Positions 52,903-54,765 of a stretch of 64,000 nucleotides of DNA are shown here, in pieces. The position numbers were made by a program, and so were the translations under genes. Numbering within the stretch: position 1 is the stretch's first letter; each line of letters starts with the position of its first letter. The stretch is from Dyella acidisoli (GTDB lineage Bacteria > Pseudomonadota > Gammaproteobacteria > Xanthomonadales > Rhodanobacteraceae), in assembly GCF_030160295.1 (NCBI RefSeq), contig NZ_BSOB01000006.1, positions 150,767-214,766 of the forward strand, read 5' to 3'. The notes under the pieces were generated by a model. That model saw only the letters and a program-made list of their open reading frames with translations, was not told the DNA's origin and ran no database searches.

Positions 52903-53655
52903 ATGCATATGGATTCGTCCAAACCGCGCCCGGTCGCACTGATCACTGGTGGCGCCAAGCGCGTAGGTGCCGTGATCGCGCGCACCCTGCATGCCGCCGG
53001 GTACGACCTCGCCTTGCACTGTCGCCATTCGAGAACAGACGCGGATGCGCTTGCTGACGAACTTTCCGCGCAGCGCGCCAACAGCGCGCTAGTCGTGCAA
53101 GCGGATCTTGCGGACCTACCGGCACTGCCGAATCTGGTCGACACAACGGTTTCACGTTTCGGTCGTCTCGACGCACTGGTCAACAACGCCTCCGCGTTTT
53201 ATCCCACGCCGTTGGAAACGGCCACGTTGACGCAATGGAACGAGTTGTTCGCATCCAACGCGCAAGCGCCCTTCTTTCTTGCACAAGCCGCGCTGCCGGC
53301 ATTACGTGAAGCGCGCGGCGCTATCGTCAATCTCGTGGACATCTACGCCGAGCGTGCGCTGGCGCAACATCCCATCTACGTGATGGCAAAAGCGGCATTG
53401 GCGGCGATGACGCGCTCACTGGCGCTCGATCTCGGCCCGGACATCCGCGTCAACGGCGTCGCACCCGGCGCGGTCATGTGGCCAAGCGATGGCAAACCGT
53501 ACAGCGATCAGGAAGCCATGCTGGCGCGCACACCGCTCAAGCGTGCCGGAGCGCCGGAAGATGTGGCCAGCGCCGTGTTGTGGCTGTTGCGCGATGCGCC
53601 GTTTGTCACCGGCCAGATCATTCGCGTGGATGGCGGGCGCAGCGTATCGGTCTAG
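52903..53655 (+). CDS. Pteridine reductase (short-chain dehydrogenase, FolM-like)
   Basis: A 250-residue short-chain dehydrogenase. TGGAKRVG (15-22) is the NADPH motif with arginine, typical of pteridine reductases such as PTR1 and FolM, which reduce dihydrobiopterin, dihydrofolate or related pterins. NNAS, the catalytic serine region and YVMAK (the Tyr-Lys pair) are present, and the C-terminal end GQIIRVDGGRSVSV is normal. Its stop shares the bases CTAG with the stop of folK on the other strand, so the folate-related genes meet tail to tail. A start two codons later (ATG at 52909) is possible. Confidence 0.9.
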   Translation: MHMDSSKPRPVALITGGAKRVGAVIARTLHAAGYDLALHCRHSRTDADALADELSAQRANSALVVQADLADLPALPNLVDTTVSRFGRLDALVNNASAFYPTPLETATLTQWNELFASNAQAPFFLAQAALPALREARGAIVNLVDIYAERALAQHPIYVMAKAALAAMTRSLALDLGPDIRVNGVAPGAVMWPSDGKPYSDQEAMLARTPLKRAGAPEDVASAVLWLLRDAPFVTGQIIRVDGGRSVSV

Positions 53656-54134
53656 AGTTGCTCGATGATGAGCGGCTCGCTTTCAACCGGAAATGCCGCC
53701 CACAGCTCAGCCATAGTGCGTCCGTTGACCGGGTGACGCATCTCCGGCGCGATATCGGCGATCGGCTTCAGCACAAACGCATGCTTCAGTTCCTTGCGCG
53801 GAATATCCAGATGCCCCGGCCCCTGCGTAACGAGGTCGTCGTAAAGCACGATATCCACATCCAGCGTGCGGTCGGCGTAACGCGGCACATCGCGGCGACG
53901 GCCATGGCGATCTTCCAGCGCATGCAGCCAATCGTTGAGTTCGTTGGGCGAAAGCTCTGTATCCAAGCCCACGGCGAGATTGATGAAATCCGCACCGTCG
54001 AAGCCGACCGCGGCACTGCGATAGGCAGGCGATACGTCGATATCGCCGAAGTGCGCACGCAACTCGTTCAGCGCGGCGCGCAGATAGCGATGCGGCTCCT
54101 GATTGGAGCCAAGACTCAAGTAAACGCGCGCCAT
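53652..54134 (-). CDS. folK: HPPK, 2-amino-4-hydroxy-6-hydroxymethyldihydropteridine diphosphokinase
   Basis: A 160-residue kinase that moves pyrophosphate from ATP to 6-hydroxymethyl-7,8-dihydropterin in folate synthesis. It begins MARVYLSLGSNQEPHRYLRAA and contains the HPPK signature RYADRTLDVDIVLYDD with the two metal-binding aspartates, plus LDIPRKEL and FVLKPIADIAP. The length is normal. The ATG at 54134 matches the family start; the open frame runs further upstream only because the structured element there has no stop codons. The nearest Shine-Dalgarno-like GGAG (54147-54150) lies inside the outer stem of that element. It follows folB on the reverse strand. Confidence 0.95.
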   Translation of the reverse strand: MARVYLSLGSNQEPHRYLRAALNELRAHFGDIDVSPAYRSAAVGFDGADFINLAVGLDTELSPNELNDWLHALEDRHGRRRDVPRYADRTLDVDIVLYDDLVTQGPGHLDIPRKELKHAFVLKPIADIAPEMRHPVNGRTMAELWAAFPVESEPLIIEQL

Positions 54135-54140
54135 GTCTAT

Positions 54141-54409
54141 GGGATGCTCCGATCCATTCTGCGTGGGCGTCACCGGCTCTGTCCGTTCGCAGGCCACAGG
54201 GCCATCGGCGAAGGCAGACTGGCCGTCTGTCGAGGCGATGGACCGAAGGCATGCGGACGGACAGAACCGGCCCGAAGGGTGATGTCCAGAAGGCTCGCAG
54301 GCTGCGCCGCGCGACTTGAAAAGACGGCCAGTCTTCCCTGCGCCGCGCAACACAGCCTGCGAGCCTTCTGGACATCATGCCGCCTACGCAGAATGGATCG
54401 AAGCATCCC
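54141..54409. repeat. Multi-branched palindromic element filling the folB-folK gap
   Basis: Imperfect 27-base ends (54141-54167 and 54383-54409, GGGATGCTYCGATCCATTCT onward) pair and enclose two further hairpins. Hairpin A (about 54173-54271) has arms GGCTCTGTCCG / CGGACAGAACC. Hairpin B has perfect 23-base arms (54280-54302 and 54355-54377, GATGTCCAGAAGGCTCGCAG). The inner tips of A and B carry mutually complementary AGACTGGCCGTCT-type sequences. The element begins at the folB stop codon and ends ten bases before folK's ATG. Confidence 0.88.
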
Positions 54410-54765
54410 TAGGGCCGCTTCCCGCGCTCAATGCGTACACCGACGGCTTTCGCACCGCGCACCGCGCCGGGCTTGGACAGTTTCAGCCGCACCCACACCA
54501 CGCCGAATTCCTCGCGAATGATCGCGACGCAACGCTCGGCCAGCGTTTCGACCAAGCCGAATTTCGATTCACTCACGTAAGCGATGAGCCGCTTGGACAC
54601 ATCTTTGTAATTGAGTGTGTCGGTGATGTCGTCGCTGGCGGCGGGCACGGTGTTGTCGAACGCCATCTCGATGTCGAACGACAAGGTCTGGCGCACGCGG
54701 CGCTCCCAGTCGTAGATGCCGATGACGGTGTCGATGCGCAGATCTTCGATGAAAACTATGTCCAT
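54409..54765 (-). CDS. folB: Dihydroneopterin aldolase
   Basis: A 118-residue enzyme that splits dihydroneopterin to hydroxymethyldihydropterin and glycolaldehyde, the step before HPPK. MDIVFIEDLRIDTVIGIYDWER is the family start, with the catalytic-site glutamate in the helix; LNYKDVSKRL and VETLAERCV are the other conserved parts, and KLSKPGAVRGAKAVGVRIER holds the C-terminal catalytic lysine region. The ATG at 54765 is chosen by alignment. It lies 32 bases after tsaD on the reverse strand; folK follows beyond a 274-base structured gap. Confidence 0.94.
   Translation of the reverse strand: MDIVFIEDLRIDTVIGIYDWERRVRQTLSFDIEMAFDNTVPAASDDITDTLNYKDVSKRLIAYVSESKFGLVETLAERCVAIIREEFGVVWVRLKLSKPGAVRGAKAVGVRIERGKRP

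What the first reader, a model, noticed from the sequence alone, without database searches (positions are those of the whole stretch)
54135..54409. Multi-branched element that spans the whole folB-folK gap
On the reverse strand the element starts at the folB stop codon and runs to ten bases before the folK ATG. Its ends pair (27 bases, two mismatches), and inside are two separate hairpins, one with perfect 23-base arms. The tips of the two hairpins are complementary to each other (AGACTGGCCGTCT against AGACGGCCAGTCT), so a loop-loop contact is possible. The only Shine-Dalgarno-like GGAG for folK is in the outer stem, so folding would hide it. Either this is a cis-acting RNA that sets folK translation within the tsaD-folB-folK transcript, perhaps sensing a pterin or folate, or it is a MITE-like insertion that has been tolerated there. 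Seen: all pairings. Inferred: regulation.
Basis: partly seen in the sequence, partly recalled or inferred. Interest (0 to 1): 0.78.

Follow-up and report, generated by a model that had tools for sequence, protein, structure and literature searches.

The report
Jumping palindrome between two folate genes
The elaborate hairpin between the folate genes folB and folK is one of about thirty copies of a small jumping DNA element in this bacterium, most likely moved by a transposon enzyme of a known family, and not a folate-sensing switch; its oddities are that its paired arms differ between copies yet match within each copy, and that copies mostly sit in front of genes.

Summary
The structure is real: 27-base outer arms (25 Watson-Crick pairs), two hairpins, RNA fold z -15. 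It is not a folK-specific RNA: 29 places in the same genome were examined, and all 15 sampled congeners match (one weakly), but 0 of 24 genomes of other families. An IS5-family insertion sequence of Rhodanobacter has the same ends and a YTAR duplication, so this is an IS5-derived MITE, core 54142-54408 (minus strand). Among 60 relatives with adjacent folB-folK, 55 have gaps of 31 nt or less; D. monticola keeps a 40-nt remnant, D. tabacisoli an opposite copy, one Rhodanobacter a sister element with other ends but the same design. Arms co-vary (4% mismatch within, 25% between copies) without consistent G-U preference, yet orthologous copies decay mostly one side at a time (22 against 6 paired changes). 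Copies avoid convergent gaps (4 of 96 against 42 of 231) and 42 of 57 in same-strand gaps point with transcription; the sister family repeats this, 15 of 17. The loop-loop contact is not conserved. Effects on folK are untested.

The parts
54142..54408 (-). IS5-derived MITE, two-hairpin form (267 bp), order hairpin A then hairpin B toward folK
   Evidence: Ends from comparison of copies and from the IS5-family parent
54382..54408 (-). left terminal inverted repeat, 27 bp
   Evidence: pairs with 54142-54168: 25 Watson-Crick, 1 G.T, 1 A.C
54142..54168 (-). right terminal inverted repeat, 27 bp; holds the GGAG nearest folK (54150-54147)
54280..54377 (-). hairpin A, 98 bp, tip AGACTGGCCGTCT
   Evidence: 24 of 24 pairs in the scored arm; helices 2-3
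54173..54270 (-). hairpin B, about 98 bp, tip AGACGGCCAGTCT
   Evidence: helices 4-6; MFE structure
54409..54412 (-). left copy of the target site, CTAG (holds the folB stop TAG)
   Evidence: YTAR consensus of flanks
54137..54141 (-). right target-site remnant, CATAG (imperfect copy of CTAG)
53652..54134 (-). folK (HPPK), intact
   Evidence: PF01288, 98 bits
54409..54765 (-). folB (dihydroneopterin aldolase)
   Evidence: PF02152, 109 bits; gene call 54409-54765

Best explanation
The element is a non-autonomous miniature transposon (MITE) of the IS5 family that inserted into a YTAR (CTAG) target at the folB stop codon. It has no transposase gene and would be moved in trans by an IS5-type DDE transposase that recognises GGATGCTCTGATC-type ends (shown: shared ends, target duplication, dispersed copies; inferred: trans-mobilisation). 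The two arms of a copy are matched when it lands and then decay mostly one side at a time; the strong co-variation between copies is therefore laid down mainly in the source lineages or during mobilisation, probably by copying one arm from the other on a folded strand (template switching), with occasional paired changes in place (inferred). At folB-folK it separated two genes whose reading frames overlap or nearly touch in most relatives; folK now probably starts from the GGAG in the element's right end, which the outer stem can cover, so a mild effect on folK translation is plausible but untested.
For: Dispersed copies: 62 match rows in the own genome, many of them hairpins matching themselves in reverse, at 29 examined places of which 20 are full two-hairpin copies. 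In a 61-genome set: own genome, 15 of 15 congeners (one, G007, by a single weak match), 9 of 21 genomes of other genera of the family, 0 of 24 of other families. Parent: an intact IS5-family transposase (DUF772, DDE_Tnp_1) between GGATGCTCTGAT ends with TTAG on both sides on a Rhodanobacter denitrificans plasmid; L203 of G032 is the same insertion read on the other strand. Broken or partial relatives with the same or nearly the same ends lie in G003, G004 and G038. Target: identical 4-bp flanks in 16 of 99 copies against 5.2 shuffled, 0 of 2000 shuffles as high. Site: 55 of 60 adjacent folB-folK pairs in relatives have gaps of 31 nt or less; the D. tabacisoli copy is opposite and, of the 99 compared, closest to another copy of its own genome. 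Arms: 4.2% mismatch within against 24.7% between 99 copies; the separately fetched 39 alone give 4.3% and 26.5%; 56 of 99 pairs changed on both sides against 26.3 shuffled. Outer-arm mismatches 45 G.T and 51 A.C.
Against: No transposase with these ends was found in the window's own genome: its two matches share 38-42% identity with the parent and no such ends were seen beside them, though two of the copies are cut by contig ends. Only one intact parent locus with exact ends was seen; intact relatives of the transposase in G030, G039 and G050 lack these ends within two mismatches. The target duplication at folB-folK is imperfect. Template switching is not shown: in orthologous copies one-sided changes outnumber paired ones 22 to 6, and the 6 include shared events; a G.G and three T.G pairs in hairpin A and a C.A pair in hairpin B stay mispaired in most copies. 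By stem the G.T:A.C balance differs (outer 16:19, A 30:12, B 10:29), so an RNA-level role of single stems is not excluded.
Confidence: 0.9

Rival explanations
1. A cis-acting RNA at folB-folK that senses a pterin or folate and sets folK translation by hiding the Shine-Dalgarno sequence.
For: Very stable fold; GGAG in the outer stem; strong co-variation; a sister element in the same gap of a Rhodanobacter.
Against: Copies at many other loci; gaps of 31 nt or less in 55 of 60 adjacent folB-folK pairs; opposite orientation in D. tabacisoli; no Rfam match at the gathering threshold; tips do not co-vary; no consistent wobble preference.
Confidence: 0.02
2. A mobile element in origin that is kept as a portable 5' leader: transcribed in the A-to-B direction, it modulates the gene behind it by cleavage, mRNA protection or start-site occlusion.
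For: 4 of 96 copies between convergent genes against 42 of 231 background gaps (Fisher p 0.0007); 42 of 57 copies in same-strand gaps in sense orientation (p 0.0005), 37 of 45 in subfamily I; sister family 15 of 17, or 13 of 15 with orthologues counted once (collapsed by hand); B end within 20 nt of a called start in 36 of 77 copies with a start on that side.
Against: Subfamily II shows no bias (5 against 7); the second Dyella sample alone is not significant (14 against 7, p 0.19); outer arms of orthologous sister copies decay mostly one side at a time, so their pairing is not strongly kept after insertion; no expression data; an insertion preference or loss of harmful insertions could give the same picture.
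Confidence: 0.25
3. A REPIN-like element moved by a RAYT (Y1) transposase as folded single-stranded DNA.
For: Arms with compensatory changes, as reported for REPINs (PMC3116915, passages); four Y1_Tnp genes in the own genome, two of them about 2-3 kb from a copy or a decayed copy (coordinates).
Against: YTAR target duplications and ends shared with an IS5-family element; the end motif and hairpin B tip were not found within two mismatches in the 3.2-3.3 kb around each Y1 gene.
Confidence: 0.05

Closest known systems
IS5-family insertion sequence with transposase WP_007509076.1, Rhodanobacter denitrificans plasmid NZ_CP088981.1
   Same: GGATGCTCTGAT at both ends and a YTAR duplication (TTAG)
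   Different: about 1.19 kb with a transposase; the inverted-repeat scan (14 nt or more) found only its ends, no hairpins A or B
Correia elements of Neisseria (MITEs)
   Same: short, mobile, mostly immediately upstream of genes (as stated in PMC10969869, passages)
   Different: no sequence relation tested; some carry promoters (same passages), whereas the consensus scan of the window copy found none
BOX, RUP and SPRITE repeats of Streptococcus pneumoniae
   Same: small repeats, BOX modular with stem-loops (part recalled, part passages of PMC3049150)
   Different: those are over-represented between convergent genes (same passages); this one is depleted there
REPINs of Pseudomonas
   Same: inverted arms with common compensatory changes (PMC3116915, passages)
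   Different: REPINs associate with RAYT transposases; this one shares its ends with an IS5 DDE element

Membership tests
MITE | short, without a transposase gene, many dispersed copies | tested here: met
   265-290 bp in most of 99 copies; 29 places in own genome
MITE | terminal inverted repeats shared with an autonomous transposon | tested here: met
   GGATGCTCTGAT at both ends of the IS5-family element L202 (= L203)
MITE | target-site duplication | tested here: met
   16 of 99 identical 4-mers against 5.2 shuffled; imperfect at folB-folK
IS5 family, YTAR group | target YTAR | tested here: met
   left flank YTAR in 40 of 99, right in 33, both in 20; IS5 motif YTAR stated in PMC10359306 (passages)
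IS5 family, YTAR group | mobilisation by the IS5 transposase | not testable with these tools
   needs a transposition assay
REPIN/RAYT | Y1 transposase gene flanked by the same repeats | tested here: not met
   two Y1 genes lie 2-3 kb from a copy, outside the scanned flanks
riboswitch or folK leader RNA | conserved at orthologous sites of one gene or pathway | tested here: not met
riboswitch or folK leader RNA | match to a described RNA family | tested here: not met
   gathering threshold, whole window
riboswitch or folK leader RNA | ligand binding | not testable with these tools
   needs probing

The most novel reading that the evidence does not exclude
A three-way palindromic body that is inherited as a shape and travels under different transposon ends (GGATGCTC in Dyella-type genomes, AGAGCCTG in Rhodanobacter): its arms are rewritten to match each other as DNA while the sequence drifts, and hosts keep copies as sense-oriented 5' leaders that set a coverable ribosome-binding sequence in front of the next gene in many operons.
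Probability: 0.18. Interest if true: 0.72.

Novelty: new variant of a known kind. Interest (0 to 1): 0.46.

Why it matters
A striking, strongly co-varying RNA structure inside an operon turns out to be a transposon scar, so fold stability and co-variation alone do not prove an RNA regulator. The copies form a natural series for asking how inverted arms come to match, by template switching or by selection, a question raised for RNA genes in PMC8794818 (abstract, opening text and one section read). The bias toward gene fronts and sense orientation, opposite to what PMC3049150 (passages) reports for pneumococcal repeats and seen again in a sister family, is directly testable.

Tried and rejected
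RNA-regulator reading: rejected on dispersal, absence at most orthologous sites and tip statistics. Rfam: nothing at the gathering threshold. RAYT mobilisation: see rivals. Own-genome DDE_Tnp_1 genes as parent: ends not seen (the boundary script gave no usable ends). A pair of ends 1-3 kb apart in four congeners with the exact motif GGRTGCTCTGATC: none in the list, which missed the G003 insertion sequences found later because one of their ends differs. Solo ends as transposase remnants: no tblastn match of the parent in 30 loci. GGAG enriched beside start codons: 3 of 4 against 32 of 95, p 0.13, not supported. Wobble test oriented by transcription: sense copies 24 G.T and 29 A.C, antisense 4 and 10, divergent 15 and 19, after setting aside the inherited C.A pair of hairpin B (18, 1 and 10 cells more of A.C); no RNA signature in sense copies. 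The two Dyella loci with opposite or paired insertions were separate insertions or unresolved. No promoter or terminator by consensus scan. Literature, in the held library only: no paper with both Dyella and 'miniature inverted-repeat'; three with Rhodanobacteraceae and MITE, by listing about ticks, fungi and ants; titles listed for Rhodanobacter with repeat words not to the point (15 of 4,114 listed).

Rows dropped: of 81 placements, 66 with an outer-arm score of 20 or more went into the context count and 61 full-length ones into; L183 was then left out for mis-anchoring; L267 was dropped; 3 of 99 copies lacked a called neighbour. L038 and L039 were fetched but not examined. In the sister set 28 loci were examined and one duplicate dropped; 13 further loci with weak or partial matches were not examined. 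One search scored at most 12 candidates per genome. One search kept the best 80 of 548 relatives.

L203 had been taken for a second parent locus but is the same insertion as L202. The short hairpin is 28 bp, not 29.

Full report
Observation. The folB-folK gap on the minus strand holds a three-part palindromic structure as described: outer arms of 27 pairs with two mismatches, hairpin A with 24 of 24 pairs in the scored stretch, and hairpin B. The RNA fold is 15 standard deviations below shuffled sequence. FolB, FolK and TsaD match their Pfam families. The element proper is 54142-54408.

It is a dispersed repeat. Searching the own genome with the element gave 62 match rows; many are the hairpins matching themselves in reverse, so rows are not copies. 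Thirty-one places were fetched and 29 read: 20 are full two-hairpin copies, six are one-hairpin forms of 159-229 bp, and three are deleted or partial. Shorter forms also occur: a 28-bp hairpin in the own genome and end pairs spanning 56, 90 and 147 bp in a congener. In a 61-genome sample 25 had a match: the own genome, 15 of 15 congeners (G007 by one weak match only), 9 of 21 genomes of other genera of the family (some weak), and 0 of 24 from other families. Equal contig lengths suggest that G010 is D. dinghuensis, G004 D. monticola and G017 D. tabacisoli, so the host is a Dyella-type member of the Rhodanobacteraceae.

Who moves it. A plasmid of Rhodanobacter denitrificans carries an IS5-family transposase bounded by GGATGCTCTGAT ends and flanked by TTAG on both sides; the protein has DUF772 and DDE_Tnp_1 domains. 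A search with it gave matches at E up to 1e-30 in 14 of 61 genomes. The one in G032 is the same insertion read on the other strand. Copies in G003 have the ends exactly or with one or two changes and YTAR flanks, but their genes are broken or partial; those of G004 and G038 have up to two changes per end and also contain stops. Intact relatives of the transposase in G030, G039 and G050 do not have these ends. One G003 end reads GGATGCTCTGATTTATTCCACGT, against GGATGCTCTGATCTATTCCACGT in a common arm of the MITE. MITE copies carry the same target signature: identical 4-bp flanks in 16 of 99 against 5.2 in shuffles, CTAG the commonest. IS5 is stated to use YTAR in PMC10359306 (passages). In the own genome no transposase with these ends was found, so its copies may be stranded; the assembly has 64 contigs, so absence is not certain.

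The folB-folK site (corrected count). All 80 relatives kept have folK downstream on the same strand: 60 directly, 20 at 1.25-2.1 kb. Of the 60, 55 have gaps of 31 nt or less, 29 of them overlapping; D. monticola has a 40-nt remnant with both ends of the element; two MAGs have a different palindromic repeat of about 100 nt; D. tabacisoli has a 293-nt insert, the same family in opposite orientation, closest (92%) to another copy of its own genome and so a separate insertion; and Rhodanobacter sp. FW104-R8 has a 270-nt insert, described below. A further copy lies just before folB in G006. D. monticola shares the folB stop position with the window, consistent with one old insertion followed by deletion there.

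A sister family. The FW104-R8 insert folds into the same three-way design (z -18.4) and matches the Dyella queries only over 26 bases at the foot of hairpin B; by eye, longer copies of both families also share an insert inside hairpin B (CTCGCTCCTCAAAGCC...). Its ends are AGAGCCTG/CAGGCTCT. It is dispersed: six places in that genome and matches in 19 of 41 genomes sampled around it. The transposon behind these ends was not sought.

Arm co-variation. In the 99 Dyella-set copies the two arms of a copy differ at 4.2% of positions, left arms of different copies at 24.7%; the first 61 and the later 39 give the same picture. In an alignment of 36 copies, 95.7% of cells are paired (G-U counted), 56 of 99 pairs have a change on both sides (shuffled 26.3) and 282 cells are doubly changed (shuffled 69; slid controls 13-45). 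In 26 sister copies the figures are 6.8% within and 29.7% between, 40% over the inner 19 positions. If RNA folding were the target, G.U should exceed A.C; outer arms show 45 and 51, the sister family 20 and 26. By stem the balance differs: outer 16:19, A 30:12, B 10:29. This speaks for matching at the DNA level, though related copies are not independent events.

When the arms are matched. Five orthologous pairs of sister copies, in three groups, can be compared: 131 of 160 arm pairs are unchanged, 22 changed on one side, 6 on both sides with pairing kept, 1 on both without. Independent one-sided change at that rate would give less than one double change (my arithmetic), and two of the paired changes are adjacent, as template switching would make them; but they are shared between two of the comparisons, and one-sided decay dominates. 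So arms are matched mainly at or before insertion and are not strongly maintained afterwards. Template switching is known to homogenise inverted arms (PMC8794818, abstract and section 8). Against a complete reset, a C.A, a G.G and three T.G pairs stay mispaired in most of the 36 aligned copies, although the C.A is found resolved to T-A in 8 and to C-G in 5.

The kissing tips. Of 85 copies with both tips recognised, 40 have complementary 5-base loops; dealing the tips out at random gives 37.9 (646 of 2000 shuffles as high), so the contact is not a conserved feature.

Gene context. Genes were called with a simple codon model trained on the window, so labels are approximate; re-calling background gaps from short flanks changed the class of 3 of 231 and left 7 uncalled. 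First 66 copies: 31 sense and 8 antisense in same-strand gaps, 23 divergent, 1 convergent, 3 undetermined. Second set of 39: 14, 7, 15 and 3. Over the 99 full copies: 42, 15, 35 and 4, with 3 undetermined. Background gaps: 151 same-strand, 38 divergent, 42 convergent. The orientation bias is confined to subfamily I (37:8) and absent in II (5:7), a split made after seeing the data. The sister family, found after the hypothesis was formed, gave 15 sense, 2 antisense, 8 divergent, 1 convergent and 1 undetermined (p 0.002); with orthologues counted once, 13 to 2. Pneumococcal BOX, RUP and SPRITE repeats show the opposite trend, over-representation between convergent genes (PMC3049150, passages); Correia elements lie mostly upstream of genes (PMC10969869, passages).

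Effect on folK. The insertion removes the near-contact of folB and folK seen in most relatives and leaves a GGAG, 12 nt before the ATG and inside the outer stem. Reduced or conditional folK translation is possible; nothing here tests it.

Verdict. An IS5-derived MITE with two properties worth following: a palindromic body whose arms match as DNA and which recurs under different ends, and a preference for gene fronts in sense orientation.

Noticed in passing
L112 and L113, folB-folK gap: Two MAGs carry a different palindromic repeat (about 100 nt, CCGGCAGGGA / TCCCTGCCGG type) in the same gap.
   Followed up: no
L091, folB-folK gap: Rhodanobacter thiooxydans has AGCCTCTTCAAT after the folB stop, resembling the outer arm of the FW104-R8 sister element: a deletion remnant, or host sequence that became the arm.
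   Followed up: no
window 53652-54353 (-): The folK frame is open upstream through most of the element (233 aa from a GTG), so automatic annotation may give FolK a false N-terminal extension.
   Followed up: no
L020, L036, L037, L152; L274, L277, L278: Some copies of both families carry a similar extra insert of about 45 bp inside hairpin B.
   Followed up: no
L126, L128, L129, L130, L135, L136: Solo ends (often CTAG then GGATGCTCTGATCTAT) with no second end nearby; no transposase fragment beside them.
   Followed up: partly
L201:1341-1418: A Y1 (RAYT-like) transposase gene with a 31-nt inverted repeat just upstream, probably a separate REP system.
   Followed up: no
L238 and L266: Two genomes carry the element at the same locus in opposite orientation, each more like other copies than like one another.
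   Followed up: partly
L240: In a congener (G006) a copy lies immediately before folB in the same operon.
   Followed up: partly
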